DNA from: Cucumis sativus
Lineage: Eukaryota > Streptophyta > Magnoliopsida > Cucurbitales > Cucurbitaceae
Length of the DNA stretch: 64,000 nt
Reading direction: 5' to 3'
NCBI RefSeq assembly: GCF_000004075.3
Contig: NC_026657.2
Location: forward strand, 19,092,501-19,156,500
Shown here: positions 27,069 through 64,000 of the stretch, piece after piece
Numbering within the stretch: position 1 is the first letter of the stretch
How the letters are laid out: the number at the start of each line of letters is the position of its first letter
Made by a program: the position numbers and the translations under genes
Notes under the pieces: generated by a model
Databases searched by the model: none
The model's input: only the letters and a program-made list of their open reading frames with translations
Told to the model about the DNA's origin: nothing

Positions 27069-30000
27069 TTAGTTCTCTGCCACAGGACCTGCATTCTCGT
27101 GATGAAACTTCACCACAATGCACGTTATGTTGTCAGCACTGCCACGCGTAAACGCTGCTTCAGTTAGCTTCCGAGCAGCTGCCTCAGGTTCATCTTCCTT
27201 CCCCGCCACTAATACTGCATCCTGCATACAGAATTTAAGTTGATGTATGGAGATCACCATGTAGAGCAACTTCAATACACGGGGTTATGTAGTTTCTAGT
27301 GAGCATAACGAATAAGCATACCTCATTGCGTACCACGTCCCAAAGTCCATCGCTTGCAACAACAAGCAACTCGATGTCCTTGTCTACTTCAAGATCCTGG
27401 GTAAGTATGGTGGGCAAAATTTGTAAGTCATGGCAAGTATGTACAACAATAAGCATAAAAAAATCTAAAGAATTCAAGAACACGGTTGTACAAGTTTATA
27501 GAACAGATCACGTTCCAGTGAGATTGCAACTAAAAAAGAATCTAGCCTTGCTCCATACATAACATGCTAAATTTATCGCAACAGGAAAACTGCAATGATG
27601 AACCTTTGACACAATAACGACAGGCTCTTATATTTGACGTATTAGTTTTAGTTCTGCTGACCTGTCATGTAACTTCTTTAATTGTTAGACATGTGGCTAC
27701 TTATCATTGATCATTCATTAATGACAAAATCATGCAAGTTTAATTTACACTAAGTTGTCAACGGAGATTAGATATATGTCTAAATCAGCTATCCTTTGGT
27801 TGTTACAATTCTAGAAAGTTATAAACCATTGCCAGATATTTCATTCATCAAAGAGCTTCTTCTTCCAAAAATATGTTATTTTCTTCGAAAAATCATCTTT
27901 CTAGTCTTCATAAGTTTTGATGAATATATAGGTCGGTACTTGAGTTCTACATATGTACATTTTTAGACTCCAAGTTCATAAAAATAAATCTCATTTGGTC
28001 AGTTTTCAAAGTAAATCTTTCTAATCTGAATTTTTAAAAATAGTTTAAGTATTTTTGTTTGATTTTTATGAAAATATTTATATGATATTTAAAATGAGAA
28101 AAAAATAGAGAGACTACGATTTTTATAAATTATTCATCTAATTTTAAATGTTATATAATTATTTATTTAAAATAAAAGTATAAAATTATTTTATTAATCT
28201 TTTAAACCTATTTTAAAAAACTCATAGCCTAAAAAAATGTGACTAAAATAGTACATTTTTAAAACTTAGAGACCAAACACACGTATTCTTCAAAACTTGA
28301 GGACTAAAAAGGTATTTTTCCCTCATTTTTTTAGTAAAGCCTTCCAAAAATACATTATTAGTTCGGTAGCTATCACGAATTGAACTATACAGTTATTCAG
28401 TCTCCCACAGATAGTAAACAAACTTAAATTTAGAAACTAAAATGGTCAGCTGTATGACGGGGTGTTAGAAATGATACCTGAATATCGGGATCCGCCACAA
28501 CAAACTGCTTCAACATCTTGTTACCGAAAGCACGGGACATTGCTAACACTCCTCCTACTCTCCAAGTGCCTGACAACAACAGACAATACAATGTGCTTAC
28601 AGTATGGATTGCTGCGATGACATAGTAGCAACTAGAAAGTGATCGAGAACTACAACTTGATAAACTTCAAAAACAAGAGCTAAAGGCAATAAATTCTACC
28701 TAGAAGATGGTCAGAAGAAACTAATCTCTAAGAAGTTTAATTTGCTGTATACGGTAATAGTGCTCAGGCAACCAATAGATAATTATCAAGGAAATGAATT
28801 CCAACTTCCCTGAAATCATTCTACTTCCAAAGTTGTTCATAAGAATCAGACCTTTCCATTAGTATGTGAATCATTCTTATTGGAGAGCGTAAATGTGACG
28901 ATGTAACTCTGCGTCCCTAATTTATCTATTTCAATTTATTACAGATTATTTGCCAATACACAAGAAAACCAACAGGTTTAGCAGTTCTTAACATCATTAA
29001 CAAAACCGTTGTTAAAATCTTACCAGCCCACATGACAACACCCCCAGCATTTTCAATTCTCCTCCGCTCGTCAGTTCTGTTTGGTTTATGGTCCTCAGAA
29101 AGAGGGATAGCTGCCCAGCAGAATGAAAATAAGTTTCAAGTTTCTGTATGAAACGTAAGCATGAAGGTACAAGACCAAACATAGGAAACAAAGCTCATTG
29201 TCATATAGTTAAATATAAGTCATAATAATCATTATGATTTGTTTAACTCTAATCATATTTATCGTTCACTTTTACAAGAGACTATCATGCTCACAGCCTT
29301 GAGTCTACCTTTACATTGTTATCATTAAAACTAAAAAAGCATAGAAAACAAGAAAAAGTAAACAACTAAGATTGTCACATAGCATTAATATACCTTCACC
29401 TCCCTTTGATATAATAGTACGTGAATCTCCAACATTGGCAACATAGAGATGATTGCCAACCAGCAAAGCAGTTGAAGCAGTAGAGCCATCATCCCTTAAA
29501 GTATCCTTTTCCGAATTTAAAAATTCAGCATCTGTCTGTTGATACGTTTCACCTGGGAATTCATAGAAAAAACTTTTGATGTACATACAGAATTAACGAC
29601 ACAAATAAAATTTTCACAAAAGAAAACAGTTATGTAAACAAAGAATGTGAAACTTCAAGATCCTTTACTTTTACACTTATTTATCTATTTATTTTTTATA
29701 GAAACAACTTTCATTGAGAAAAAATGAAAGAATACAAAGACATACAAAAAACGAGCCCACCAGAACACCCCAATTACAAGAAGAGGGCTAATTAAAATAT
29801 TACCAATAGAATAGTTACAAAAGGTCTTCGAAATTGAAACCCAAAGGCACATGTGAAATCTAACCAAGGACCAAACCATCCAGTCGTTCCTCTCCTCCCA
29901 AACATCCCAAACTGCACACACCCCAGCCAACCACAAAAGACGCTCTCTCTTTGAAAGGTGGATCGAGGAGGAACTCCTCGATCGTCACACGAACACCACA

Positions 30001-31812
30001 AAGTCCAACATAGCCAAGTGTACTGTTACACTTGTGGGCAGTGTTCTAAAAAAGCCCTCTTGGGCACACGCCTAGACTCAAGGCCCAAGTCTAGCATCTC
30101 GGCTGGAAAAGACGAGGCTTACAATACAAGACACCGCCTTTTGTGAAGTCCCAAGGCTCAAGCCTGAGCCTTGTGGCTTTTTCATTTTTTTTATAACAAT
30201 AATTTGGGGTTTTCCTTCTTTTTTAACTAAAAATCAAATTTACTAAGCCTAAACGCAAAATTTATTGTGAAGGTTTTTTTTTTCTTCATATTTCCACATT
30301 AACTATGCTCTCTCTTCTTAATGTAGTACTTTTATATATAGTGTGCCTCACAAAAAACAAGTGCTCGTTTCTTTTTCACCTTGCGCTTAAGCCCTAGAAG
30401 AGTATTGCCTTTGTTGCAACTTAAGCTTTAAAAAACACTACTTGTAGGCAGCTAAAATACAATCATCATATAAATGTAATGACTTTATCTTCATAAACAA
30501 ACGAATAAGGCAAAAGGGAAATGAAACACACTGATAGCTAATTTGGTATCCGTCAAAAATTTTGGGTGCTTCATTAGATTCTCAAAGAGATGGTCCTTCA
30601 AAAACTCTGCAGCTCGGGACCCACCGTGACCTGCACCCAAATGGAAAGAAGTAAATATCTCTACTAGTTATAATATCTGTAAGATATGCATGGTGGATTA
30701 ATTTGAAAGATTAGCATCAACTATGCTCTCTCTGATAATGATTGAATTCAAGCGTCAAAATTAATTAAGATGTATGGCTTGGGTGATAAAGTTGAAACTT
30801 AGAGTCGTTTGGCAGAGTGATGAATCTCAAAGTTTTTTTTTAAAATCTTCAATCATCTAAGGGGCTGTTTGACAACCATTTCATTTTTTATGTTTTGCTT
30901 TTAAAATTAAGCTTATAAACAATACTTATACATTGCATTTTTCTAGCTTTGCTACTTTTTAAAAACGTTTTCTTAAACTAAACCAAAATTTCAAAACAAA
31001 GAAAATGTAGTTTTCAAAAACTTGATGTGGTCTTTGAAATTTGGTTGAGAATTCAAATGTCTTTTAAAGGGAGCTGAAAAGCACACCACAAATTGGTGAG
31101 AAAACAACCATCATTTTAAAAAATAGAAAAAAGAATGTTAACAAATGGGACCTAAATGAAACTTAACAGTTAACAACATATCACCTAGAAATTGGATAGA
31201 TTAAAATTTACTAATAATTAACACCTACATATGTCACTGCTAGAATGGTGGGAGAATCTAACCATCAAAGATGCCAAAAAGGCAGACAGTTTGACCATCG
31301 ACCTTCGACATTTTAATATCAAAGAAATCTTCCATGGTTGCCCTCTTCCCTCTGAAACTTGAATACCCCCAACTAAGTCTCCCATCTTCACTGTATATCA
31401 AACCAAAGATAATAAGTTTAGTACATATCTCATTGGAATCCATAGTTTAGGTGAAACAACAAGGTCAAAGCATTATGATCTTGTCATCTTCATACGAACA
31501 AAATAACAATTCAGCAACACGACTCAAAATAAATAGAAGTAAGCTTTATTCAGACCTTTTCCATCCTCCACTTGTATAGCCACCATCTTCATCTTTCTCT
31601 GGATGCTTATCAACAATCGGCCCACGGTTTTCAGATGCACCTGTATCTACCATCATCATGAGACTTGTTCTATATTCACGCTTCCAGGTGTGAACAAATC
31701 CAAGATTGGAAGGCAAACTCCTCCAGATATTACTGATTTGGACCCTTCTATTGATTATTCCTATATGTCCAGCCTGAGCAATCACATTCCTTATATTGTA
31801 GCTGCATACCAT
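27069..31812 (-). CDS. Protein phosphatase 2C, clade F-like
   Basis: Metal-dependent Ser/Thr phosphatase of the PPM family. Eight coding exons join in frame: 31556-31812, 31263-31390, 30532-30630, 29394-29552, 29024-29110, 28478-28569, 27322-27396 and 27069-27221. They give 349 aa. Catalytic signatures are all present: RATMEDF (Glu106/Asp107), DGHGG at 128-132, GDSR at 203-206, DHKP at 221-224, SDGLWDV with Asp290, and [10 protein letters not shown] with Asp329. All introns are GT..AG. Sequence style matches the Arabidopsis At1g43900-type group rather than clade A, so a role as ABA co-receptor is not supported. The start at 31812 gives an N-terminal extension; three consecutive Met codons at 31651-31659 (residues 52-54) are alternative starts. 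Intron 3 (29553-30531) contains transposon-derived DNA. Confidence 0.93.
29690..30029 (-). mobile_element. LINE 3'-end fragment in PP2C intron 3
   Basis: Minus-strand reading frames give [18 protein letters not shown] followed by [20 protein letters not shown], typical of the extreme C-terminus of plant LINE polyproteins. It is truncated at its 5' side and inserted in the same orientation as the host gene. The T-rich stretch near 29680-29700 on the plus strand may be the old poly(A) tail. Confidence 0.6.
30041..30439. mobile_element. MULE-like inverted-repeat element in PP2C intron 3
   Basis: The ends GTGTTCTAAAAAAGCC and, inverted, GTGTTTTTTAAAGCTT form a terminal inverted repeat. Flanking 11-bp repeats ACTTGTGGGCA (30030-30040) and ACTTGTAGGCA (30440-30450) differ at one base and fit a MULE-type target duplication. 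The interior has pairs of GCCTTG/CAAGGC-rich stretches able to fold back. No coding capacity. Confidence 0.65.
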
Positions 31813-37845: not shown

Positions 37846-38456
37846 AATCGAAGATCTAGAAGTAAGATTTGGAAATTTTGTTCTAAATTGAGTCACTCCA
37901 CAATCAAACTTGATCAATGTTAGATTGAATGATTTGCATGCATTATATCATAAGATTGCAAATTAAGCAAAAACTCTCAAAATGAGATTTCAAATTGTAT
38001 TCATAAAATTTTTTGTCCTTACAAATGAAAGGATAAAGGCATTATAGGATTGTAGAGGTTCTATCCTAATTAATGAAAATACCAAAAGTCTTTAAAACAT
38101 TAACTAATCTTTTTATCTTCCAACAACTAATTTTCAACCACCATTTTTAATAATAAGCTATTAATGATAGTTACCCTAACTTGTTAAATTACAAATGAAA
38201 ATACAATAAAAATGTGATATTAAGTAAGTCATGAGGTCTTCAAATTGTTGGCTTCAAGGAAGCTTAATGTCTACCCCATAATCCACTTTAATCGAGAAAA
38301 CATTGACCTTCAAATTTTCAAAGGGTCCTTCATCTCTTGTATTATTAGTATGTGACACATAAAATTCACGGTGAATCGACCCTATCCATTCTTGTACATG
38401 AAGAATGAATGATTGTTGAATTTTTTATGCTTTAGATCTTGTAATTGGTTCCTCCA
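37846..38456 (-). repeat. Left copy of gypsy terminal segment
   Basis: About 610 bases closely matching 48063-48683, including ATCGAAGATCT and CACTCCACAATCAAACTTGA. Reading the better preserved right copy on the minus strand shows the end of pol (GPSTRSKASKIQQSF, then a stop). The repeat therefore spans the 3' end of pol plus non-coding or LTR sequence. Confidence 0.75.
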
Positions 38457-38916
38457 GAACGAGGGGAACATATGATTCACATCATTTTCCCCCTGTTTAA
38501 AAGGATTCGTTCTAGAATCAAGAAATTCATCACCTACATCAAAAGGACTCAAATCAGCAATATTGAAAGTATAACTTACCGAATATTCTCTTGGACGGTC
38601 AATTTTGTATGCATTGTTGTTAACTTTTTCAAGAACTTTGAAAGGCCCATCCCCTCTTGGATGTAACTTTGTTTTCCTTTGAGACAGAAATCGCTCTTTG
38701 CAAAATTGCACCCAAACCCAATCTCTTGGTTTAAAAATCAGTTGTATTCTTCCTTTGTTGACTCTTGAAGCTACTTTGGAGTTATTTTTTTCAATCTCTT
38801 TCACTTCCTTGTACAATGTCTTGATCAACTTTATCTTGTTTGTAGCTGCATCACTTATACAAACATTAGAAGTAATAGACAACAAATCAAGAGGTGCAAG
38901 TGGGTTAAACCCATAA
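38457..38916 (-). pseudogene. Gypsy integrase C-terminal fragment
   Basis: Reads HPRGDGPFKVLEKVNNNAYKI and ADLSPFD, the conserved end of plant gypsy integrases, in a 167-codon open frame (38382-38885). Upstream codons YGFNPLAPLDLL run into the CACTA insertion, and the frame resumes on its far side. Confidence 0.88.
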
Positions 38917-48062: not shown

Positions 48063-48683
48063 AATCGAAGATCTAAAAGCAATATTTGGAAATCTTGTTC
48101 TAAATTGAATCACTCCACAATCAAACTTGATCGGGGTTAGATTGAATGACTCATACGCATTCTATCACAAGAATTGCAAATTAAGGAAAAACTCTCAAAA
48201 TAAGATTTCAAATTGCATTTATCAAAAGTCTTGTCCTAACTTACAAATGAAAGGATAAAAGCATTATATAGGCTTGTAGAGGTTCTATCATAATTAATGA
48301 AAATACCAAAAGTCTTTAAAACATTAACCAATCTTTTTATCTTCAAACAACTAATTTCCAATCACCATCTTTAATATTAAACTATTAATGGTAGTTACCC
48401 TAACTTGTTAAATTAAAACAAATGAAAATACAATAAAAATGTGATATTAAATAAGTCAAGAAGTCTTCAAATTGTTGGTTTAAAGGAATCTTAATGTCTA
48501 CCCCATAGTCAACTTCAATATAGAAAACATTGACCTTCAAATCTTCAAATAATCATTCGTCTCTTGTATTAGTATGTGGTTCATGAAATTCACGGTGAAC
48601 CAACCCTAACCATTCTTGTACATGAAGAATGAAGGATTGTTGAATCTTTGATGCTTTAGATCTTGTGCTTGGTCCTTCCGGAA
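48063..48683 (-). repeat. Right copy of gypsy terminal segment
   Basis: Matches 37846-38456. On the minus strand it contains the end of a gypsy pol frame (GPSTRSKASKIQQSFILHVQ and a stop after RDE), followed by non-coding sequence and then, abruptly, RT codons of the main relic. Confidence 0.75.
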
Positions 48684-48699
48684 AGTGTGGAACACAGCT

Positions 48700-49900: not shown

Positions 49901-50531
49901 TTTTTTTAAAAGGTAATCTTATAATACAACAACAAGGAGGACCTCATAGCCTGAAGCCAAGACACAGGAGTAGACAATGCTCACAAAAACAGAAAGAATT
50001 CAAAGTACCAAAAGAAAGAACAACAAAATTAAGAGCAATAAGAACATAAAAAGTCAAAACAACCCCACAACACAAAGAAGGGAAACAAATACAAAGAATA
50101 ACAACCCCACAGCCCGGGGACAAGCAGACAAAACAAAAATAGAAAGAAAACAAGCTAAATAATATCATGAACATCCTCACGCCAATGAAATGCACTCCCC
50201 TAAGGTTAACTATAATTAGGGTTAACTATAATTTCAGTGGAATATGTGAGTTCACATTTAATTCAACACATACTCTCGCATATAAAAATCTTCGTCTTTC
50301 CTTAGTAGCTAGATCTAAAGACAAAGATTTTCCTACAACACTAGTAACAACAGCCAATCCTGATTTTGTCCACAACACCATAGGAATTCTACCAAGTTTG
50401 ATCCAAACAAGAACAAAAACGAAAAGAAAGAATTCAGGGAATACTTGGAGTCCATTTACGGAGGAGCATAGGTTTTCCACCAAGATGCCAAGATCCACCC
50501 AACAGATTTTGGACGTTTGAATTGGAAACAA
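49900..50531 (-). mobile_element. Internally deleted LINE remnant
   Basis: Minus-strand frame 50226-50531 reads VWIKLGRIPMVLWTKSGL and RRFLYARVCVEL, typical of the DUF4283 region of plant LINE-associated ORF1 proteins. It is followed by a hydrophobic frame (49944-50195) resembling a LINE tail. A T-rich run on the plus strand near 49899-49911 could be the poly(A) tail. The reverse transcriptase body is missing. Confidence 0.5.
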
Positions 50532-50605
50532 ATGAGATCATTCTAAAAAATCAAAATAGTGAACATTTCAATTTCCCCCTAGATTTTTTCAATAAGCTGA
50601 TGAAT

Positions 50606-51240
50606 CACTACTAAAAAATCTACTTTACTTGACACTAACAACTTTTACATACTTGACGTTTTCATTAGAAAAAAAATGTCAAGTATTGATCAGTTTAAAG
50701 AAAAAACGTCAAGTATACTTGGAAAAAGCAAAGTTTTCGCGAATTTTTCGAACTATCTCATGTTAGCTTTTACTCGACGTTTCTTTCGCGTCAAGTATAG
50801 TTAAATTTACTTGACACGGAAAAAACATCAAGTATAGTTAACATTTTTATTTGACTCGTTTGAAACTCAAGTATAAAAATATATACACCTTTTTTATTTT
50901 TAGCATGAGAGAAAACTTTAAAAAAAATATTAAAAAGCATCCCGACACCTTTCCCTTATTAGCTCTCTTCACCACGGCTCCACCTCTTCACGCATTCTTC
51001 GCGTTCGCGGTATGACTGCTTCGTTTGCTTCACCTTCACGCCAACCTTCGCATTCTCTTCACCTTCACATTTGCGTCGTCTCTTCACGTTCTCTTCACGC
51101 CTTTCGTCGTCAACTGCGTTTGCGTCGTCCTCTGTTGCCATTTCCATCGTCCTCCGTCGCCAGCATCTCCTTCGTCGCCCACTTATTCGACGCCTGCGAA
51201 GATCTCCAACACCGGCCACTCCATTTGTAAATAGATAATT
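50606..51240. mobile_element. CACTA-type terminus, copy 1
   Basis: Starts CACTACTAAAAAATCTAC, a common plant CACTA terminal sequence, followed by many direct and inverted copies of an ACTTGACG-type subterminal motif to about 50875. It then has a GC-richer region with GTCGTC/CTTCAC repeats. Only one terminus is visible; no matching inverted end ending TAGTG was found in the unit. Similar copies start at 54900, 59194 and 63486. Confidence 0.7.
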
Positions 51241-51455
51241 AAATGTAAATAGATAGGTAGATATTATGTTTACATCAAACGCAAAGATGACATCAAGATG
51301 TTTATTTAACAACCTCTTTTAAATGGTGGATTTTAATCATCTTGGTTACACTTAGTTAGCATTAAAACTAATTATTAATTAAAATTCATGTTGAAATTAC
51401 ATATGCTAATTGTTTAGTGAAAATATTATTTCACAATTTAAAATACTTCTTTAAT

Positions 51456-51806
51456 TTATACTTCACGGTGTGTGCTGTGTGATGGTTGAAACAGTGAAGA
51501 TAAATAAATCCAAGTCAACCTAGAGGGAATGGAAAAAGAGATAATCAACAGAATAATAGGAAGTAACATTTGATTTCTTTCTAGCCAAATTGTCCACAAT
51601 AAAACAGCAATAAAGTTGAAAGCAATGACCCCTTTTTTTGTTCTTCTGGTTGATATAGAACAAATCTCCTTGCATAAGGATTTGATGCTCTCATGGGAGT
51701 TCTGCCAAAGAAGCAGATTATCAGTCCTATTCCAAAGGTCTTGAGCATTCTCGCAGGCGATGAACATGTGGTTTAAGGTTTCTGATTTGTTTTCGCAAAG
51801 ATTGCA
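51456..51806 (-). pseudogene. LINE zinc-binding (zf-RVT) fragment, copy 1
   Basis: Minus-strand frame reads CNLCENKSETLNHMFIACEN, the CX2C...HX4C pattern of the zf-RVT domain at the end of LINE reverse transcriptases, then a WTIWLERNQ stretch. It is open only for this domain, so it is a fragment carried in the repeat unit. Copies at 55743-56092 and 60045-60395. Confidence 0.65.
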
Positions 51807-52106
51807 TCAGTTTGGATTGGAGAATGGAGATCATGACCATGTTGATACTATATGTTAATTAAAGGGTTGTTGAGAATAAGATTACGGATCACATATATTA
51901 TATCATATTATATTAATTACTATGATAACATCAAGCAAAACTCATGATTCAAAAAGATTGATTGTGGTCTATTGACGGTGTTTTTATAGTTTCTTATACG
52001 TTTGTGAATAAGAAATCATATACTGTGAAAAACAAAGAAATAAAGATACATAGTTCGTTAAAAAAAAAATTTAATATTTATTCATGTATGTATATTACAC
52101 CATTAA

Positions 52107-54574
52107 TCAATTTTGTGCACATAGTGCTTGAACTGCCAATCTTGCAGATAAATTTGTAGCATCGCCTAATCCAAATGACTTTGCAGATACATCGATTGAA
52201 CAACTTTCCATGCCAATGCAAGCTTTTTCAAGAATAAGAGCAATGTTTGTCACATCCCATGAACCTTTCTTAAACGAACCACATTTTCCCCCTGGATTTC
52301 CGTAGCTAGCAAATTGGATTTCAGAGATGACATGTCCTCCCTGACAAGACAACTCTAAGGTGCTTCCTTCATTAGCATTTCCACATATAGTTCCTATTGT
52401 GATTGTTTGAACTGACACTTGTTGTGGATTTCCACCAATTTCTTCAAATAAAATCAATGTGTTTGTGTCGCTTGAAAGAAATGATCTTGGAACATGATAC
52501 CATCTTTGAGAAGGATTTCCACAATTTTCCACACATTTGCTAGGGTTGTATGCACCTCTGTAGTCACATGTTGCGCTGCAACTATCATTGCCAGCAATGA
52601 AAGATGGCCAAAATCGGCCTATGCTTTGCCCATTTACCCATGCTTGGCCTTTTCCCATTCCTTGCATGTCCAAGACTACTGGGTCAATTCCAGCAGGTGT
52701 CTTAAAGCTAGTCTTGTACCATGTCATTCGCCTTCCAATAGATTTTTGATTTAGCGGAATCCAATTTGTTCTTTGTGAGAACATCGGGTTGTAAATTTGC
52801 TTCATTTCTCCATTTAATCCAACCTTATAAGACCATAAATTTGATGACAAATCAGTTGTCACATTTCCATCTCCAATTAGATAGATCGGGCCTCCATCGA
52901 TTCCTGTTGGCACCATATCATAAAACGCGTCATAATTCTTCAACCCAACTGTGGCACTCAAAAGAGTTATTGTGTTGATTCCCGATTTTAGTAGAATGGG
53001 TTTCTCAAACACAAAACTCTGGCCATTACTCCCCCATTTCGACCCAATGTATCTTTTATTGACGAAAGCATGAAGCACATGACCCTTTGTATTTACTTGG
53101 AGAGTCACATTTTGAAGTGAAGATGTTCCGTTAGTGTCAACCTTCGTCATGTACCAGAAGTAATCGCTAAAATCAACTGTGACCCTTTTTTGTTCCAAAA
53201 GAAGGTTTGCCGCAAATTTACCATTTCCTTGCAGTGTGTCTTTCATAGGTTCTGGAGCCCAAGCCCATGACAGTTGTGCATTTTCCTTCTCATTTTGCTC
53301 CTTCACACAAACATAGATGTCTGAGAATTTACTTTTGCAGTGTTGTAAACCTCCTTGTTGCAACCATCAAGAATGCTCACAGACCAAGCTGGTACAAAAT
53401 ATTTTCCATCTTCTTGTAGATCTATGGTGGCATCATTTTTTCCATCTGTGTTGCTTAAAAAGCAAAACCTCTCCCCAGTTGTTGGGTTAGAAAATTTCGT
53501 TAAAGTTACAGAGCTACCAAAGTTTTGGTTTGAGCGTGTGCTGTTAGTGAGAATCTTCTCTCCTAACTTGATTGATGCATGGAGTTGTTTGAGATGCCCC
53601 CATTTAGGTTGATTCAAGTTCCCATATTCATCAAGTGGGGCGTTGTAGTCGTAAGATGTAGTGATGAATGGACCTCCCGATGTCCTTCCAAAGTTGGTGC
53701 CTCCATGATACATGTAATAATTGTTGAACACACCACCAGATTGAAAAAATCTTGCCACAGAAAATGCTACATCTTCTGCAGTTCTATAAGGGTCTTTGTC
53801 GCCCCATTTCTTGAACCATCCCACCCAATTTTCAGTGAACATTTTTGGGCTCTTAGGATTGTTTGGAGTAAAGTTATCACAATAGAATCCATTGCATGTA
53901 TTAATCATAGGTTGTGGGGCATCACTTTGTTGGCACATGATCCATGGAACGCCAATATTGAGAGATTCGGCCATTTGAGCACACCAATTGATGTATGCTT
54001 TTCCTGCATCTCCATAAGCTGGTGTCATCACATTTCCATACTCATTCTCGATTTGAGCTAATATTATTGGCCCTCCTTGTGAAGCAAAGAGATTGGCTTG
54101 TTTACACATATTTACTATCTTTGTCGTGAAAGTTTGCATTTCATTCTTGTAAACTTGATTGTTAGTTCGTAGTTGGATTCCTGGCATATTGTGCAACCAC
54201 ACTGGAAAGCCTCCGTAGTTCCACTCGGCACACACGTAAGGACCAATCCTCATGACAACATAAAGTCCAGCGTCTTGGATAAGTTGGAAGAATTTAATAA
54301 AATCTAAACGTCCAGAGAAATCATATTTTCGTCGTTGTGGCTCGTGACGATCCCAGAAAATGTATGTCTCAATTGCATCAAGTCCACCATCTTTAGCTTT
54401 TTGAATGAGATCAGGCCACATTGCTTCAGTGCTGCGTGGATAATGAATTGAGCCTGAGAAGATAATGCGCCGTTCTCCATTGATAATTAACGCATTTGAA
54501 TCATATGAAACATTATCTCCTATGCAAAAAGTCAAGCAAGCTAGAGTTGCAACAAGCCATTGAAGCTTAAACAT
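52107..54574 (-). pseudogene. BGAL: Beta-galactosidase (GH35), copy 1, frameshifted
   Basis: Same gene as the intact copy at 60695-63160 but with two extra bases (CA) in TCACACAAACAT near 53308. The first frame (53303-54574) stops after residue 423, keeping the signal peptide and the whole catalytic barrel with Glu178 and Glu248. The rest (galactose-binding-like domains and the C-terminal lectin domain) continues in another frame from about 53300 to the TGA at 52107. No introns are seen. If transcribed it would give a truncated enzyme. A sequencing or assembly error is an alternative, because the lesion is a dinucleotide gain in a CA repeat. Confidence 0.9.
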
Positions 54575-54632
54575 CCTTTATCCGGCCACAACTTGTGTCC
54601 TTGGTTTATTTGTTTTTCTCAATCGATGTGTT

Positions 54633-54642
54633 TATTTATATA
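54633..54642 (-). promoter_or_regulatory. TATA box of beta-galactosidase copy 1
   Basis: TATATAAATA on the minus strand, about 60 bases before the ATG at 54574. The same box precedes copies 2 and 3 at 58916-58925 and 63219-63228. Confidence 0.6.
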
Positions 54643-54899
54643 GAATACATTGTGATAAGGTGAGAGTTCTTTCCTACGTATATTTGTGTTCAAGTTGTTG
54701 AATCAATTCTTAACATAGAAAAGCGCTGACAAATTTTTTTTTGATATGAGTTGCATCCTTTGAAATTGGAGAATCCTAGTTTGCCTTATCCTTAAATAAC
54801 ATTTTGCCGAATTACAGCTGTTATACGCAACTAACAAAGTTGTGTGTTTTTCCCCTAAAAAAACATAAGATTCTATTTTTCATTTTTCACATTTGGTTT

Positions 54900-55530
54900 C
54901 ACTACTACAAAATCTACTTTACTTGACACTAACAACTTTTACATACTTGACGTTTTCATTAGAAAAAAAATGCCAAGTATTGATCAGTTTAAAGAAAAAA
55001 CGTCAAGTATACTTGGAAAAAGCAAAGTTTTCGCGAATTTTTCGAACTATCTCATGTTAGCTTTTACTCGACGTTTCTTTCGCGTCAAGTATAGTTAAAT
55101 TTACTTGACACGGAAAAAACATCAAGTATAGTTAACATTTTTATTTGACTCGTTTGAAACTCAAGTATAAAAATATATACACCTTTTTTATTTTTAGCAT
55201 GAGAGAAAACTTTAAAAAAAATATTAAAAAGCATCCCGACACCTTTCCCTTATTAGCTCTCTTCACCACGGCTCCACCTCTTCACGCATTCTTCGCGTTC
55301 GCGGTATGACTGCTTCGTTTGCTTCACCTTCACGCCAACCTTCACATTCTCTTCACCTTCACATTTGCGTCGTCTCTTCACGTTCTCTTTTCGTCGTCAA
55401 CTGCGTTTGCGTCGTCCTCTGTTGCCATTTCCATCGTCCTCCGTCGCCAGCATCTCCTTCGTCGCCCACTTATTCGACGCCTGCGAAGATCTCCAACACC
55501 GGCCACTCCATTTGTAAATAGATAATTAAA
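54900..55530. mobile_element. CACTA-type terminus, copy 2
   Basis: Starts CACTACTACAAAATCTAC. It shares with copies 3 and 4, but not copy 1, the C in CTACAAAATC and the C in AATGCCAAG. Confidence 0.7.
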
Positions 55531-55742
55531 TGTAAATAGATAGGTAGATATTATGTTTACATCAAACGCAAAGATGACATCAAGATGTTTATTTAACAAC
55601 CTCTTTTAAATGGTGGATTTTAATCATCTTGGTTACACTTAGTTAGCATTAAAACTAATTATTAATTAAAATTCATGTTGAAATTACATATGCTAATTGT
55701 TTAGTGAAAATATTATTTCACAATTTAAAATACTTCTTTAAT

Positions 55743-56092
55743 TTATACTTCACGGTGTGTGCTGTGTGATGGTTGAAACAGTGAAGATAAATAAATCCAA
55801 GTCAACCTAGAGGGAATGGAAAAAGAGATAATCAACAGAATAATAGGAAGTAACATTTGATTTCTTTCTAGCCAAATTGTCCACAATAAAACAGCAATAA
55901 AGTTGAAAGCAATGACCCCTTTTTTTTTCTTCTGGTTGATATAGAACAAATCTCCTTGCATAAGGATTTGATGCTCTCATGGGAGTTCTGCCAAAGAAGC
56001 AGATTATCAGTCCTATTCCAAAGGTCTTGAGCATTCTCGCAGGCGATGAACATGTGGTTTAAGGTTTCTGATTTGTTTTCGCAAAGATTGCA
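55743..56092 (-). pseudogene. LINE zf-RVT fragment, copy 2
   Basis: Same fragment as at 51456-51806. The T-run change near 55920 breaks the reading frame after ISTRRKKKG, so this copy is split into overlapping frames. Confidence 0.65.
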
Positions 56093-56392
56093 TCAGTTTG
56101 GATTGGAGAATGGAGATCATGACCATGTTGATACTATATGTTAATTAAAGGGTTGTTGAGAATAAGATTACGGATCACATATATTATATCATATATATAT
56201 TAATTACTATGATAACATCAAGCAAAACTCATGATTCAAAAAGATTGATTGTGGTCTATTGACGGTGTTTTTATAGTTTCTTATACGTTTGTGAATAAGA
56301 AATCATATACTGTGAAAAACAAAGAAATAAAGATACATAGTTCGTTAAAAAAAAATTTAATATTTATTCATGTATGTATATTACACCATTAA

Positions 56393-58857
56393 TCAATTTT
56401 GTGCACATAGTGCTTGAACTGCCAATCTTGCAGATAAATTTGTAGCATCGCCTAATCCAAATGACTTTGCAGATACATCGATTGAACAACTTTCCATGCC
56501 AATGCAAGCTTTTTCAAGAATAAGAGCAATGTTTGTCACATCCCATGAACCTTTCTTAAACGAACCACATTTTCCCCCTGGATTTCCGTAGCTAGCAAAT
56601 TGGATTTCAGAGATGACATGTCCTCCCTGACAAGACAACTCTAAGGTGCTTCCTTCATTAGCATTTCCACATATAGTTCCTATTGTGATTGTTTGAACTG
56701 ACACTTGTTGTGGATTTCCACCAATTTCTTCAAATAAAATCAATGTGTTTGTGTCGCTTGAAAGAAATGATCTTGGAACATGATACCATCTTTGAGAAGG
56801 ATTTCCACAATTTTCCACACATTTGCTAGGGTTGTATGCACCTCTGTAGTCACATGTTGCGCTGCAACTATCATTGCCAGCAATGAAAGATGGCCAAAAT
56901 CGGCCTATGCTTTGCCCATTTACCCATGCTTGGCCTTTTCCCATTCCTTGCATGTCCAAGACTACTGGGTCAATTCCAGCAGGTGTCTTAAAGCTAGTCT
57001 TGTACCATGTCATTCGCCTTCCAATAGATTTTTGATTTAGCGGAATCCAATTTGTTCTTTGTGAGAACATCGGGTTGTAAATTTGCTTCATTTCTCCATT
57101 TAATCCAACCTTATAAGACCATAAATTTGATGACAAATCAGTTGTCACATTTCCATCTCCAATTAGATAGATCGGGCCTCCATCGATTCCTGTTGGCACC
57201 ATATCATAAAACGCGTCATAATTCTTCAACCCAACTGTGGCACTCAAAAGAGTTATTGTGTTGATTCCCGATTTTAGTAGAATGGGTTTCTCAAACACAA
57301 AACTCTGGCCATTACTCCCCCATTTCGACCCAATGTATCTTTTATTGACGAAAGCATGAAGCACATGACCCTTTGTATTTACTTGGAGAGTCACATTTTG
57401 AAGTGAAGATGTTCCGTTAGTGTCAACCTTCGTCATGTACCAGAAGTAATCGCTAAAATCAACTGTGACCCTTTTTTGTTCCAAAAGAAGGTTTGCCGCA
57501 AATTTACCATTTCCTTGCAGTGTGTCTTTCATAGGTTCTGGAGCCCAAGCCCATGACAGTTGTGCATTTTCCTTCTCATTTTGCTCCTTCACAAACATAG
57601 ATGTCTGAGAATTTACTTTTGCAGTGTTGTAAACCTCCTTGTTGCAACCATCAAGAATGCTCACAGACCAAGCTGGTACAAAATATTTTCCATCTTCTTG
57701 TAGATCTATGGTGGCATCATTTTTTCCATCTGTGTTGCTTAAAAAGCAAAACCTCTCCCCAGTTGTTGGGTTAGAAAATTTCGTTAAAGTTACAGAGCTA
57801 CCAAAGTTTTGGTTTGAGCGTGTGCTGTTAGTGAGAATCTTCTCTCCTAACTTGATTGATGCATGGAGTTGTTTGAGATGCCCCCATTTAGGTTGATTCA
57901 AGTTCCCATATTCATCAAGTGGGGCGTTGTAGTCGTAAGATGTAGTGATGAATGGACCTCCCGATGTCCTTCCAAAGTTGGTGCCTCCATGATACATGTA
58001 ATAATTGTTGAACACACCACCAGATTGAAAAAATCTTGCCACAGAAAATGCTACATCTTCTGCAGTTCTATAAGGGTCTTTGTCGCCCCATTTCTTGAAC
58101 CATCCCACCCAATTTTCAGTGAACATTTTTGGGCTCTTAGGATTGTTTGGAGTAAAGTTATCACAATAGAATCCATTGCATGTATTAATCATAGGTTGTG
58201 GGCATCACTTTGTTGGCACATGATCCATGGAACGCCAATATTGAGAGATTCGGCCATTTGAGCACACCAATTGATGTATGCTTTTCCTGCATCTCCATAA
58301 GCTGGTGTCATCACATTTCCATACTCATTCTCGATTTGAGCTAATATTATTGGCCCTCCTTGTGAAGCAAAGAGATTGGCTTGTTTACACATATTTACTA
58401 TCTTTGTCGTGAAAGTTTGCATTTCATTCTTGTAAACTTGATTGTTAGTTCGTAGTTGGATTCCTGGCATATTGTGCAACCACACTGGAAAGCCTCCGTA
58501 GTTCCACTCGGCACACACGTAAGGACCAATCCTCATGACAACATAAAGTCCAGCGTCTTGGATAAGTTGGAAGAATTTAATAAAATCTAAACGTCCAGAG
58601 AAATCATATTTTCGTCGTTGTGGCTCGTGACGATCCCAGAAAATGTATGTCTCAATTGCATCAAGTCCACCATCTTTAGCTTTTTGAATGAGATCAGGCC
58701 ACATTGCTTCAGTGCTGCGTGGATAATGAATTGAGCCTGAGAAGATAATGCGCCGTTCTCCATTGATAATTAACGCATTTGAATCATATGAAACATTATC
58801 TCCTATGCAAAAAGTCAAGCAAGCTAGAGTTGCAACAAGCCATTGAAGCTTAAACAT
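56393..58857 (-). pseudogene. BGAL: Beta-galactosidase (GH35), copy 2, frameshifted
   Basis: Identical in layout to the intact copy but lacks one G of a GGGG run near 58198. The upstream frame (58189-58857) stops after 222 residues. It contains the signal peptide and the acid/base Glu178 but not the nucleophile Glu248. The downstream frame (56393-58192, 599 codons) begins at an internal Met and carries the rest, including the nucleophile region FTENW and the lectin domain. The single-base homopolymer change could be a real mutation or a consensus error. Without introns, a splicing explanation is unlikely. Confidence 0.9.
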
Positions 58858-58915
58858 CCTTTATCCGGCCACAACTTGTGTCCTTGGTTTATTTGTTTTT
58901 CTCAATCGATGTGTT

Positions 58916-58925
58916 TATTTATATA
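58916..58925 (-). promoter_or_regulatory. TATA box of beta-galactosidase copy 2
   Basis: TATATAAATA, about 60 bases upstream of the ATG at 58857, as in the other copies. Confidence 0.6.
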
Positions 58926-59193
58926 GAATACATTGTGATAAGGTGAGAGTTCTTTCCTACGTATATTTGTGTTCAAGTTGTTGAATCAATTCTTAAATGA
59001 ATCAAGAACATAGAAAACGCTGACAAATTTTTTTTTGATATGAGTTGCATCCTTTGAAATTGGAGAATCCTAGTTTGCCTTATCCTTAAATAACATTTTG
59101 CCGAATTACAGCTGTTATACGCAACTAACAAAGTTGTGTGTTTTTCCCCTAAAAAAACATAAGATTCTATTTTTCATTTTTCACATTTGGTTT

Positions 59194-59825
59194 CACTACT
59201 ACAAAATCTACTTTACTTGACACTAACAACTTTTACATACTTGACGTTTTCATTAGAAAAAAAAATGCCAAGTATTGATCAGTTTAAAGAAAAAACGTCA
59301 AGTATACTTGGAAAAAGCAAAGTTTTCGCGAATTTTTCGAACTATCTCATGTTAGCTTTTACTCGACGTTTCTTTCGCGTCAAGTATAGTTAAATTTACT
59401 TGACACGGAAAAAACATCAAGTATAGTTAACATTTTTATTTGACTCGTTTGAAACTCAAGTATAAAAATATATACACCTTTTTTATTTTTAGCATGAGAG
59501 AAAACTTTAAAAAAAATATTAAAAAGCATCCCGACACCTTTCCCTTATTAGCTCTCTTCACCACGGCTCCACCTCTTCACGCATTCTTCGCGTTCGCGGT
59601 ATGACTGCTTCGTTTGCTTCACCTTCACGCCAACCTTCGCATTCTCTTCACCTTCACATTTGCGTCGTCTCTTCACGTTCTCTTCACGCCTTTCGTCGTC
59701 AACTGCGTTTGCGTCGTCCTCTGTTGCCATTTCCATCGTCCTCCGTCGCCAGCATCTCCTTCGTCGCCCACTTATTCGACGCCTGCGAAGATCTCCAACA
59801 CCGGCCACTCCATTTGTAAATAGAT
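59194..59825. mobile_element. CACTA-type terminus, copy 3
   Basis: Starts CACTACTACAAAATCTAC. It has one more A than copies 2 and 4 in the run before ATGCCAAG (about 59257-59266), otherwise nearly identical. Confidence 0.7.
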
Positions 59826-60044
59826 AATTAAATGTAAATAGATAGGTAGATATTATGTTTACATCAAACGCAAAGATGACATCAAGATGTTTATTTAACA
59901 ACCTCTTTTAAATGGTGGATTTTAATCATCTTGGTTACACTTAGTTAGCATTAAAACTAATTATTAATTAAAATTCATGTTGAAATTACATATGCTAATT
60001 GTTTAGTGAAAATATTATTTCACAATTTAAAATACTTCTTTAAT

Positions 60045-60395
60045 TTATACTTCACGGTGTGTGCTGTGTGATGGTTGAAACAGTGAAGATAAATAAATCC
60101 AAGTCAACCTAGAGGGAATGGAAAAAGAGATAATCAACAGAATAATAGGAAGTAACATTTGATTTCTTTCTAGCCAAATTGTCCACAATAAAACAGCAAT
60201 AAAGTTGAAAGCAATGACCCCTTTTTTTGTTCTTCTGGTTGATATAGAACAAATCTCCTTGCATAAGGATTTGATGCTCTCATGGGAGTTCTGCCAAAGA
60301 AGCAGATTATCAGTCCTATTCCAAAGGTCTTGAGCATTCTCGCAGGCGATGAACATGTGGTTTAAGGTTTCTGATTTGTTTTCGCAAAGATTGCA
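60045..60395 (-). pseudogene. LINE zf-RVT fragment, copy 3
   Basis: Matches copy 1 in frame and length, with the CNLC...H...C zinc-binding pattern on the minus strand. Confidence 0.65.
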
Positions 60396-60694
60396 TCAGT
60401 TTGGATTGGAGAATGGAGATCATGACCATGTTGATACTATATGTTAATTAAAGGGTTGTTGAGAATAAGATTACGGATCACATATATTATATCATATTAT
60501 ATTAATTACTATGATAACATCAAGCAAAACTCATGATTCAAAAAGATTGATTGTGGTCTATTGACGGTGTTTTTATAGTTTCTTATACGTTTGTGAATAA
60601 GAAATCATATACTGTGAAAAACAAAGAAATAAAGATACATAGTTCGTTAAAAAAAAATTTAATATTTATTCATGTATGTATATTACACCATTAA

Positions 60695-63160
60695 TCAATT
60701 TTGTGCACATAGTGCTTGAACTGCCAATCTTGCAGATAAATTTGTAGCATCGCCTAATCCAAATGACTTTGCAGATACATCGATTGAACAACTTTCCATG
60801 CCAATGCAAGCTTTTTCAAGAATAAGAGCAATGTTTGTCACATCCCATGAACCTTTCTTAAACGAACCACATTTTCCCCCTGGATTTCCGTAGCTAGCAA
60901 ATTGGATTTCAGAGATGACATGTCCTCCCTGACAAGACAACTCTAAGGTGCTTCCTTCATTAGCATTTCCACATATAGTTCCTATTGTGATTGTTTGAAC
61001 TGACACTTGTTGTGGATTTCCACCAATTTCTTCAAATAAAATCAATGTGTTTGTGTCGCTTGAAAGAAATGATCTTGGAACATGATACCATCTTTGAGAA
61101 GGATTTCCACAATTTTCCACACATTTGCTAGGGTTGTATGCACCTCTGTAGTCACATGTTGCGCTGCAACTATCATTGCCAGCAATGAAAGATGGCCAAA
61201 ATCGGCCTATGCTTTGCCCATTTACCCATGCTTGGCCTTTTCCCATTCCTTGCATGTCCAAGACTACTGGGTCAATTCCAGCAGGTGTCTTAAAGCTAGT
61301 CTTGTACCATGTCATTCGCCTTCCAATAGATTTTTGATTTAGCGGAATCCAATTTGTTCTTTGTGAGAACATCGGGTTGTAAATTTGCTTCATTTCTCCA
61401 TTTAATCCAACCTTATAAGACCATAAATTTGATGACAAATCAGTTGTCACATTTCCATCTCCAATTAGATAGATCGGGCCTCCATCGATTCCTGTTGGCA
61501 CCATATCATAAAACGCGTCATAATTCTTCAACCCAACTGTGGCACTCAAAAGAGTTATTGTGTTGATTCCCGATTTTAGTAGAATGGGTTTCTCAAACAC
61601 AAAACTCTGGCCATTACTCCCCCATTTCGACCCAATGTATCTTTTATTGACGAAAGCATGAAGCACATGACCCTTTGTATTTACTTGGAGAGTCACATTT
61701 TGAAGTGAAGATGTTCCGTTAGTGTCAACCTTCGTCATGTACCAGAAGTAATCGCTAAAATCAACTGTGACCCTTTTTTGTTCCAAAAGAAGGTTTGCCG
61801 CAAATTTACCATTTCCTTGCAGTGTGTCTTTCATAGGTTCTGGAGCCCAAGCCCATGACAGTTGTGCATTTTCCTTCTCATTTTGCTCCTTCACAAACAT
61901 AGATGTCTGAGAATTTACTTTTGCAGTGTTGTAAACCTCCTTGTTGCAACCATCAAGAATGCTCACAGACCAAGCTGGTACAAAATATTTTCCATCTTCT
62001 TGTAGATCTATGGTGGCATCATTTTTTCCATCTGTGTTGCTTAAAAAGCAAAACCTCTCCCCAGTTGTTGGGTTAGAAAATTTCGTTAAAGTTACAGAGC
62101 TACCAAAGTTTTGGTTTGAGCGTGTGCTGTTAGTGAGAATCTTCTCTCCTAACTTGATTGATGCATGGAGTTGTTTGAGATGCCCCCATTTAGGTTGATT
62201 CAAGTTCCCATATTCATCAAGTGGGGCGTTGTAGTCGTAAGATGTAGTGATGAATGGACCTCCCGATGTCCTTCCAAAGTTGGTGCCTCCATGATACATG
62301 TAATAATTGTTGAACACACCACCAGATTGAAAAAATCTTGCCACAGAAAATGCTACATCTTCTGCAGTTCTATAAGGGTCTTTGTCGCCCCATTTCTTGA
62401 ACCATCCCACCCAATTTTCAGTGAACATTTTTGGGCTCTTAGGATTGTTTGGAGTAAAGTTATCACAATAGAATCCATTGCATGTATTAATCATAGGTTG
62501 TGGGGCATCACTTTGTTGGCACATGATCCATGGAACGCCAATATTGAGAGATTCGGCCATTTGAGCACACCAATTGATGTATGCTTTTCCTGCATCTCCA
62601 TAAGCTGGTGTCATCACATTTCCATACTCATTCTCGATTTGAGCTAATATTATTGGCCCTCCTTGTGAAGCAAAGAGATTGGCTTGTTTACACATATTTA
62701 CTATCTTTGTCGTGAAAGTTTGCATTTCATTCTTGTAAACTTGATTGTTAGTTCGTAGTTGGATTCCTGGCATATTGTGCAACCACACTGGAAAGCCTCC
62801 GTAGTTCCACTCGGCACACACGTAAGGACCAATCCTCATGACAACATAAAGTCCAGCGTCTTGGATAAGTTGGAAGAATTTAATAAAATCTAAACGTCCA
62901 GAGAAATCATATTTTCGTCGTTGTGGCTCGTGACGATCCCAGAAAATGTATGTCTCAATTGCATCAAGTCCACCATCTTTAGCTTTTTGAATGAGATCAG
63001 GCCACATTGCTTCAGTGCTGCGTGGATAATGAATTGAGCCTGAGAAGATAATGCGCCGTTCTCCATTGATAATTAACGCATTTGAATCATATGAAACATT
63101 ATCTCCTATGCAAAAAGTCAAGCAAGCTAGAGTTGCAACAAGCCATTGAAGCTTAAACAT
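60695..63160 (-). CDS. BGAL: Beta-galactosidase, GH35, intact copy
   Basis: Glycoside hydrolase family 35 enzyme that removes terminal beta-galactosyl residues, probably from cell-wall polysaccharides or glycoproteins in the apoplast. The 821-residue frame is uninterrupted. It starts with a hydrophobic signal peptide (about 1-20, [19 protein letters not shown]). The catalytic barrel has the GH35 signature [14 protein letters not shown] with acid/base Glu178 and nucleophile Glu248 in FTENWVGWF. Beta-sandwich domains follow (GQAWVNGQSIGRFW is the family block), and the last ~87 residues form a Cys-rich SUEL-type lectin domain. The style (FTENWVGWFKKWGDKDPYR, NNYYMYHGGTNFGRT) is that of BGAL7/BGAL15-like proteins. 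Plant BGAL genes usually have many introns; here there are none. That points to a retrocopy or captured cDNA. The TATA box is at 63219-63228. Expression is unknown. Confidence 0.96.
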   Translation of the reverse strand: MFKLQWLVATLACLTFCIGDNVSYDSNALIINGERRIIFSGSIHYPRSTEAMWPDLIQKAKDGGLDAIETYIFWDRHEPQRRKYDFSGRLDFIKFFQLIQDAGLYVVMRIGPYVCAEWNYGGFPVWLHNMPGIQLRTNNQVYKNEMQTFTTKIVNMCKQANLFASQGGPIILAQIENEYGNVMTPAYGDAGKAYINWCAQMAESLNIGVPWIMCQQSDAPQPMINTCNGFYCDNFTPNNPKSPKMFTENWVGWFKKWGDKDPYRTAEDVAFSVARFFQSGGVFNNYYMYHGGTNFGRTSGGPFITTSYDYNAPLDEYGNLNQPKWGHLKQLHASIKLGEKILTNSTRSNQNFGSSVTLTKFSNPTTGERFCFLSNTDGKNDATIDLQEDGKYFVPAWSVSILDGCNKEVYNTAKVNSQTSMFVKEQNEKENAQLSWAWAPEPMKDTLQGNGKFAANLLLEQKRVTVDFSDYFWYMTKVDTNGTSSLQNVTLQVNTKGHVLHAFVNKRYIGSKWGSNGQSFVFEKPILLKSGINTITLLSATVGLKNYDAFYDMVPTGIDGGPIYLIGDGNVTTDLSSNLWSYKVGLNGEMKQIYNPMFSQRTNWIPLNQKSIGRRMTWYKTSFKTPAGIDPVVLDMQGMGKGQAWVNGQSIGRFWPSFIAGNDSCSATCDYRGAYNPSKCVENCGNPSQRWYHVPRSFLSSDTNTLILFEEIGGNPQQVSVQTITIGTICGNANEGSTLELSCQGGHVISEIQFASYGNPGGKCGSFKKGSWDVTNIALILEKACIGMESCSIDVSAKSFGLGDATNLSARLAVQALCAQN

Positions 63161-63218
63161 CCTTTATCCGGCCACAACTTGTGTCCTTGGTTTATTTGTT
63201 TTTCTCAATCGATGTGTT

Positions 63219-63228
63219 TATTTATATA
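63219..63228 (-). promoter_or_regulatory. TATA box of intact beta-galactosidase
   Basis: TATATAAATA on the minus strand, about 60 bases before the ATG at 63160. The surrounding ~320 bases up to the next CACTA end are shared by all units. Confidence 0.6.
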
Positions 63229-63485
63229 GAATACATTGTGATAAGGTGAGAGTTCTTTCCTACGTATATTTGTGTTCAAGTTGTTGAATCAATTCTTAAC
63301 ATAGAAAAGCGCTGACAAATTTTTTTTTGATATGAGTTGCATCCTTTGAAATTGGAGAATCCTAGTTTGCCTTATCCTTAAATAACATTTTGCCGAATTA
63401 CAGCTGTTATACGCAACTAACAAAGTTGTGTGTTTTTCCCCTAAAAAAACATAAGATTCTATTTTTCATTTTTCACATTTGGTTT

Positions 63486-64000
63486 CACTACTACAAAATC
63501 TACTTTACTTGACACTAACAACTTTTACATACTTGACGTTTTCATTAGAAAAAAAATGCCAAGTATTGATCAGTTTAAAGAAAAAACGTCAAGTATACTT
63601 GGAAAAAGCAAAGTTTTCGCGAATTTTTCGAACTATCTCATGTTAGCTTTTACTCGACGTTTCTTTCGCGTCAAGTATAGTTAAATTTACTTGACACGGA
63701 AAAAACATCAAGTATAGTTAACATTTTTATTTGACTCGTTTGAAACTCAAGTATAAAAATATATACACCTTTTTTATTTTTAGCATGAGAGAAAACTTTA
63801 AAAAAAATATTAAAAAGCATCCCGACACCTTTCCCTTATTAGCTCTCTTCACCACGGCTCCACCTCTTCACGCATTCTTCGCGTTCGCGGTATGACTGCT
63901 TCGTTTGCTTCACCTTCACGCCAACCTTCGCATTCTCTTCACCTTCACATTTGCTCGTCACGTTCTCTTCACGCCTTTCGTCGTCAACTGCGTTTGCGTC
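63486..64000. repeat. Tandem array unit 4, cut by window end
   Basis: Starts CACTACTACAAAATCTAC like units 2 and 3 and follows them to the window end. It has a private small deletion near 63953 (TTTGCTCGTCACG instead of the longer GTCGTC version). Whether another beta-galactosidase follows lies outside the window. Confidence 0.9.

What the first reader, a model, noticed from the sequence alone, without database searches (positions are those of the whole stretch)
50606..64000. Head-to-tail array of ~4.29-kb units, each with a beta-galactosidase gene
The CACTACTA... block starts at 50606, 54900, 59194 and 63486, giving spacings of 4294, 4294 and 4292. Between these points coding, promoter and transposon-derived parts are nearly identical. 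This is a very recent local amplification of a cell-wall enzyme gene together with transposon fragments, and it runs off the window, so the copy number is unknown.
Basis: seen in the sequence. Interest (0 to 1): 0.9.

Follow-up and report, generated by a model that had tools for sequence, protein, structure and literature searches.

The report
Tandem beta-galactosidase array with transposon fragments
A cucumber-like plant genome assembly carries eight and a half near-identical head-to-tail copies of a cell-wall enzyme gene, whose left edge sits exactly at a transposon end and whose coding sequence seems to have been copied into a relative on another chromosome.

Summary
CACTA blocks start at 50606, 54900, 59194 and 63486. 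Beyond the window the assembly holds 8 full units (4274-4296 bp) plus a ninth cut off inside the gene: C3:19143105-19179648. Each full unit has an intronless GH35 beta-galactosidase gene with its own upstream DNA, a truncated CACTA-family end and a LINE-like fragment. Three of 8 ORFs are intact; frameshifts may be long-read errors.

The CACTA block is not the repeat boundary but an insertion upstream of the gene, absent from four C5 relatives. The head-to-tail join lies near unit position 1362; a 1.14-unit relative on C1 ends there and may be the birthplace. The left edge is an exact CACTA terminus in unrelated DNA, implying CACTA-linked recombination or aberrant transposition. A biallelic site scattered over the units shows exchange between them.

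One C5 copy has array-type coding sequence (4/2466 differences) in C5-type flanks (56/440), switching near start and stop codons: probably ectopic gene conversion, but an assembly artefact is not excluded. Copy number is unverified by reads.

The parts
50605..64000 (+). In-window part of the tandem array (whole array: C3:19143105-19179648)
50605..54898 (+). Unit 1 (U1), 4294 bp; left edge of the array
54899..59192 (+). Unit 2 (U2), 4294 bp
59193..63484 (+). Unit 3 (U3), 4292 bp
63485..64000 (+). First 516 bp of unit 4, which continues beyond the window
50606..51236 (+). Truncated CACTA-family end in U1 (terminus, subterminal direct and inverted TACTTGAC/GTCAAGTA repeats, no second terminus found); equivalents begin at 54900, 59194 and 63486. 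The inner limit (about 630 bp) is inferred from where homology to BGAL-upstream DNA of other loci resumes
51965..51966 (.). Head-to-tail join of the repeat unit, unit position 1362|1363 as placed by eye (BLAST homology to C5 relatives starts at 1372-1377); in U3 at 60554|60555
51459..51806 (-). LINE-like fragment in U1, end of a zf-RVT domain (U3 equivalent 60048-60395)
   Evidence: PF13966, E 2.9e-4, 21.9 bits, below the curated cut-off of 27.5; the U3 copy was scanned
52107..54574 (-). BGAL gene of U1; frame broken by a 2-bp insertion at 53304-53305 (possible consensus error)
56393..58857 (-). BGAL gene of U2; frame broken by a missing G in a G run near 58199 (possible consensus error)
60695..63160 (-). 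BGAL gene of U3; intact intronless ORF, 821 aa, GH35 + GHD + galactose-binding + SUEL lectin domains
63161..63484 (-). Upstream region of the U3 BGAL gene (324 bp) with a TATA-like CTATATAAAT at 63220-63229 (read by eye)
   Evidence: sequence; compared between loci
50226..50531 (-). Left flank of the array: repeat with a DUF4283 match (E 3.8e-9; LINE-type by recall); its homology to a C4 copy runs up to the CACTA terminus

Best explanation
This is a tandem gene array of 8 complete and one partial 4.29-kb unit on contig C3 of a cucumber-like genome. SHOWN in the assembly: each unit is a segment that starts about 140 bp downstream of an intronless BGAL7/15-like gene, runs through the gene and its upstream DNA, then a one-ended CACTA-family piece about 325 bp upstream of the start codon, then more upstream DNA with a LINE-like fragment; its two ends are joined near unit position 1362. 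SHOWN: the array's left edge is exactly the CACTA terminus, sitting in repeat DNA unrelated to the unit, and the right edge is inside a BGAL gene. INFERRED: the first duplication arose elsewhere, possibly at C1:29.31 Mb, whose 1.14-unit relative ends at the join. Array DNA then entered the present site through the CACTA end, either by homologous recombination or break-induced copying with a resident sister CACTA element, or by aberrant transposition of that end, with non-homologous joining on the right. Copy number and uniformity were then shaped by unequal exchange between units. Ectopic gene conversion from array-type DNA has rewritten the coding sequence of at least one relative on C5. Every full unit keeps its own upstream region, so intact units should add dosage of a secreted cell-wall galactosidase (function inferred from family).
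For: Array and unit count. CACTA piece is internal: four C5 places (L012, L013, L014, L022) lack it and their upstream DNA runs straight on. CACTA identity: 13-bp terminus; 5 subterminal motifs in 300 bp against 0.014 expected, 0 of 2000 shuffles reaching 5 (motif chosen after inspection); a complete 788-bp family member with both termini and a TGC target duplication, L039. Left edge: exact terminus at 50606, homology of the flanking repeat up to it. U1's only two private substitutions among the 8 units lie in its first 75 bp (50614, 50679); T at 50679 is the state in 18 of 19 family loci (one gapped), while U2-U9, L017 and L018 have C. The L017 edge and the join coincide. Exchange between units: biallelic site at unit position 447. 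Conversion.
Against: No reads were available. Indels make up most differences among units, as expected of unpolished long-read consensus, so unit count, frameshifts and part of the homogeneity could be assembly effects. Over all 8 units one search shows 15 substitution columns, several in short clusters, and they are not confined to the CACTA end (6 of 15 in the first 480 bp), unlike the 3 of 3 among U1-U3. The resident sister CACTA is inferred from two sites only, one of which (A at 50614) is in none of the 19 family loci; the array could instead be old, its outermost bases merely escaping homogenisation. No good CACTA 3' terminus was found up to C3:19190500: none with <=2 mismatches up to C3:19186500, two weak ones with 3 up to C3:19190500. 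The birthplace rests on one coincident edge placed partly by eye.
Confidence: 0.6

Rival explanations
1. Assembly artefact: a shorter array, or one copy, was expanded by long-read meta-assembly, and near-identity between loci comes from read over-correction.
For: Indels dominate over substitutions, many in homopolymers or clustered. The likely source assembly used about 46x long reads with N50 10.8 kb and Pilon with -minmq 10, which would leave repeats unpolished (PMC6582320 passages; the consequence is my inference). L017 and L018 genes combine few substitutions with 4 insertions each relative to U3.
Against: Units carry distinct private indels (7 and 12 bp in U2, 18 bp in U5) and a shared biallelic site. 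Eight unit-unit junctions of the same form exist in the array, and the same BGAL-CACTA junction occurs at two other loci. There are no Ns, and the C5 sister L013 kept its own coding sequence beside the converted L012.
Confidence: 0.2
2. Simple non-allelic homologous recombination between two CACTA elements flanking the gene in cis created the repeat.
For: Every unit starts with a CACTA end, and U1's end differs from the others at two sites.
Against: In the unit the CACTA piece is followed by DNA that is BGAL-upstream DNA in C5 relatives, i.e. it keeps its own two native flanks; NAHR between two elements would bring in the other element's right flank. The right array edge has no CACTA copy.
Confidence: 0.07
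3. Rolling-circle or break-induced copying from a 4.29-kb extrachromosomal circle, primed from a broken resident CACTA element, laid down 8.5 copies at once; L017 and L018 are other insertions of the same circular DNA.
For: CACTA left edge and arbitrary right edge, non-integral unit number, circularly permuted 1.14- and 1.15-unit insertions without a target duplication visible by eye.
Against: The biallelic site at unit position 447, whose A allele is shared with L017 and L018, needs more than one template or later exchange. L017's right edge looks like an original duplication edge, not a random one. No circle was observed.
Confidence: 0.13

Closest known systems
Melon CmBGAL7-11 (clade F) beta-galactosidase genes, PMC9716742
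   Same: Same enzyme family and similar length; in Table 1 the genomic spans of CmBGAL7, 9 and 10 equal their CDS lengths, so intronless as annotated.
   Different: In melon listed as single genes on chr02, 03, 04 and 09; no such array is described in the passages and two sections I read. Mass and pI do not identify P0001 with any of CmBGAL7-10, so its place inside clade F is inferred.
[quoted passage not shown]
   Same: Direct repeats that begin with a class II transposon end, including one natural case with fractured ends (section 10).
   Different: Those natural cases are two-copy hAT duplications; here CACTA, 8.5 copies, no second terminus found, and the element is internal to the unit.
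Plant CACTA (En/Spm) transposons such as the soybean Tgm elements, PMC2613891 (passages)
   Same: CACTA terminus, subterminal direct and inverted repeats; a complete family member has a 3-bp target duplication.
   Different: The array copy has only one recognisable end; the unit's listed ORFs that were scanned gave no transposase match (not every listed ORF was scanned).
Concerted evolution of tandem and dispersed gene families (recalled)
   Same: Homogeneous units, exchange between units, conversion between relatives.
   Different: Here one tract on another chromosome covers almost exactly start codon to stop codon.

Membership tests
GH35 plant beta-galactosidase (BGAL7/15-like) | Glyco_hydro_35, GHD, galactose-binding and SUEL lectin domains | tested here: met
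   PF01301 7.4e-121, PF17834, PF21467, PF02140; aligns to 3w5f over residues 21-721
GH35 plant beta-galactosidase (BGAL7/15-like) | Close relatives named BGAL7/15-like in cucurbits; two catalytic glutamates | tested here: met
   names (best 120 listed); E178 and E248 are invariant in 11 aligned proteins; their catalytic role is recalled
GH35 plant beta-galactosidase (BGAL7/15-like) | Enzyme activity | not testable with these tools
   no assay
CACTA transposon | CACTA terminus and subterminal repeats | tested here: met
CACTA transposon | Matching inverted second terminus and 3-bp target duplication in the array copy | tested here: not met
   no 13-mer with <=2 mismatches in the unit; the relative L039 has both
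Reversed-ends transposition duplication | Target duplication at the duplication breakpoint and an element missing at one breakpoint | tested here: inconclusive
   the right edge lacks a CACTA copy, but no matching 3-bp duplication could be assigned
NAHR duplication between two CACTA elements | An element copy at both outer edges and at each junction | tested here: not met
   right edge inside BGAL
Recent local tandem amplification | Several head-to-tail copies with minimal divergence between flanks that are not part of the unit | tested here: met
   the flanks themselves contain repeats; read depth not testable

The most novel reading that the evidence does not exclude
The array acts as a copy-number-weighted master template whose open reading frame alone, start to stop codon, is written into dispersed relatives on other chromosomes (clearest at C5:19281517), either because indels outside the frame block strand exchange or because the template is a transcript or cDNA.
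Probability: 0.2. Interest if true: 0.7.

Novelty: new member of a known kind. Interest (0 to 1): 0.5.

Why it matters
It gives a case in which one gene with its upstream DNA was multiplied to about eight copies in a crop-like genome, with both edges, the join and a possible birthplace visible, so the transposon's part in gene amplification can be tested. The coding-sequence-only match on another chromosome, if real, is a clean natural example of interchromosomal gene conversion, in an enzyme family of which one clade is linked by expression to fruit softening in melon (PMC9716742).

Tried and rejected
Dating by substitutions was not pressed: indels of doubtful reality dominate and homogenisation resets the clock. 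The idea that the intronless gene marks a recent retrocopy was dropped: three melon relatives are intronless as annotated (Table 1 of PMC9716742); relatives of 823-852 aa from metagenome contigs of 13-33 kb (P0018, P0048, P0051, P0054) point the same way, though how those were predicted is not shown. A Pack-CACTA or macrotransposon (array inside one element) was looked for and not found: no inverted terminus with <=2 mismatches right of the array up to C3:19186500, and with <=3 mismatches only two weak matches between the array and C3:19190500. A concentration of substitutions in the CACTA end, seen among U1-U3 (chance figures), does not hold over all 8 units and is not used. Matching P0001 to a named CmBGAL by mass and pI failed. 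Two scans of viral contigs found nothing, as expected for a plant gene. Melon protein P0015 shows a 14-residue gap over the U1 frameshift site; I could not tell whether it is a shared lesion or an annotation effect.
Full report
OBSERVATION. The window holds three complete head-to-tail units and the start of a fourth: CACTACTA starts at 50606, 54900, 59194 and 63486, spacings 4294, 4294 and 4292. Self-BLAST gives 99.35% identity over 9133 bp. Units 1-3 differ at 3 substitution columns; their other differences are indels of 1-12 bp.

BEYOND THE WINDOW. After nine busy answers the own-genome search worked. The genome has 226.6 Mb in 88 contigs and the window is C3:19092501-19156500. The array goes on to give 8 complete units of 4294, 4294, 4292, 4281, 4274, 4296, 4291 and 4286 bp and a ninth that stops inside the gene at unit position about 2340 (94.05% to U3 over 2354 columns, the loss being mostly short deletions); total C3:19143105-19179648, 36,544 bp, no Ns. 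Over U1-U8 there are 15 substitution columns, some in short clusters, and many more indel columns. BGAL reading frames from the start codon are 423, 222, 821, 118, 821, 319, 821 and 224 aa, so 3 of 8 complete units are intact, and these three are identical in protein.

ORGANISM. The closest protein relatives are mostly cucurbits (best 120 of 7987 listed), and UniRef Cucumis sativus P0012 matches locus L021 at 95.8%, with alignment gaps. That this is that very assembly is inference. If so, near-identical repeats would stay unpolished, which fits the excess of indels; the frameshifts in units 1, 2, 4, 6 and 8 should not be taken as proven.

THE GENE. The 821-aa protein has GH35, GHD, galactose-binding and SUEL lectin domains and aligns to the solved beta-galactosidase 3w5f over residues 21-721. 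In a tree of 12 proteins it groups with melon P0015 (100/99 support; 3 of 9 inner branches are well supported). It is intronless, and so, as annotated, are melon CmBGAL7, 9 and 10 by the spans in Table 1 of PMC9716742 (sections 5 and 16 and passages read), so this is probably an old feature and not a recent retrocopy.

ANATOMY OF THE UNIT. The first ~630 bp are a CACTA-family end: 13-bp terminus and subterminal direct and inverted repeats (5 in 300 bp; shuffle mean 0.014, 0 of 2000 reach 5; motif picked after inspection). At least 29 further family places exist outside the BGAL-linked copies (where 40 of 137 candidates were scored). Of the 19 fetched with 1.5 kb on each side (L034-L052), one, L039, shows both termini and a matching target duplication (TGC), 788 bp. 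The unit has no second terminus with <=2 mismatches. Relatives on C5 (L012, L013, L014, L022) lack the CACTA piece: their BGAL-upstream DNA runs straight on, so the CACTA end is an insertion about 325 bp upstream of the start codon, with its other end lost. A LINE-like fragment (zf-RVT, E 2.9e-4, below the curated cut-off; 'LINE' is recalled) lies further on. Homology to the DNA downstream of BGAL in C5 relatives starts at unit position 1372-1377 by BLAST (L012, L013, L014) and at about 1363 by eye, so the head-to-tail join is near 1362|1363.

DISPERSED RELATIVES. C1:29.31 Mb (L017) runs unit 754 to 4292, then 1 to 1362; C3:24.59 Mb (L018) runs 542 to 4292, then 1 to 1175. No target duplication is visible by eye at either. 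L017 ends at the join, so C1 may be where the duplication arose.

EDGES. The left edge is the exact CACTA terminus, in a repeat (DUF4283 match) that matches C4:16674836 at 81% right up to it. A random edge would land there about once in 4,292 cases (reasoned after the fact). U1 has A at 50614 and T at 50679; U2-U9 have C and C. T is the state in 18 of 19 family loci (one gapped), and L017 and L018 have C. The A at 50614 occurs in none of the 19. So the outermost DNA of U1 either came from a sister CACTA copy or kept an old state that homogenisation never reached. The right edge lies inside BGAL next to another repeat. Right of the array no inverted CACTA terminus with <=2 mismatches was found up to C3:19186500, and only two weak ones with 3 mismatches up to C3:19190500.

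EXCHANGE BETWEEN UNITS. At unit position 447 the units read G A G G G A A G A (U1-U9), and L017 and L018 read A. One allele scattered over non-adjacent units is what unequal crossing over or conversion gives, and speaks against one pass of copying from one circle.

CONVERSION BETWEEN CHROMOSOMES. L012 (C5:19281517) and its tandem sister L013 have nearly the same flanks (0/125 and 3/315 differences) but differ at 77/2466 coding positions. L012 differs from array unit U3 at 4/2466 coding positions but at 18/125 and 38/315 flank positions. Of the columns that tell U3 from L013, 64 of 64 upstream are L013-like, 77 of 81 in the coding sequence are array-like (4 are L013-like), and 32 of 32 downstream are L013-like; the switches lie between -2 and +31 and between 2457 and 2477 of a coding sequence ending at alignment column 2472. 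L017 and L018 show the same in milder form: 6/2466 and 5/2466 in the coding sequence against 59/2371 and 33/2245 outside (Fisher p 1e-12 and 6e-7; expected third-position changes 20 and 12, found 3 and 2). L013 and the array differ mostly at third positions (60 of 81), so selection alone does not make these coding sequences identical. L014 and L015 are not converted as a whole: 42/2466 and 80/2466, with L014 a mosaic of array-like and L013-like columns. The first indels outside the frame sit close to the switch points, so ordinary heterology-limited conversion suffices. Over-correction of reads is the rival; L013 keeping its own sequence speaks against it.

VERDICT. A tandem gene amplification linked to a CACTA end, well supported in the assembly, in a family and by routes that are known in kind. 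The maize work on tandem duplications beginning with transposon ends (PMC3744419, passages and section 10) is the nearest precedent. My paper searches (listings) showed no report of this array; that is a weak negative. The ORF-limited conversion is the most unusual part and needs one amplicon to settle.

Noticed in passing
L012:6386-9302 and L013:1811-4725 (C5:19.28 Mb): A separate tandem pair of the same gene, 5.4 kb apart, 97.9% alike over 4.35 kb; one member has array-type coding sequence in C5-type flanks.
   Followed up: yes
L014, L015, L022 (C5): Further relatives; L014 and L015 have patches of near-identity to the array coding sequence, suggesting repeated short conversion tracts.
   Followed up: partly
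window 37846-38470 and 48063-48694: Direct repeat 87% alike flanking Gypsy-type RT, RNase H, integrase zinc-binding and Tf2-type fragments on the minus strand; looks like an old LTR retrotransposon.
   Followed up: partly
window 27069-31443: Exon-like pieces of a protein phosphatase 2C gene on the minus strand (PP2C, E 2e-11 for the piece at 29311-29586; the other pieces by eye).
   Followed up: no
window 23870-26298: Copia-type retrotransposon pieces (SH3_retrovirus and Retrotran_gag_2 domains) on the minus strand.
   Followed up: no
L011:3150-3900: The DNA right of the array belongs to a repeat family with many copies of about 65-80% identity, many matches starting 10-15 bp from the array edge; a transposon end may lie there.
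   Followed up: partly
melon protein P0015, around the gap after EVYNTAK: The annotated melon protein lacks 14 residues over the site of the U1 two-base insertion.
   Followed up: no
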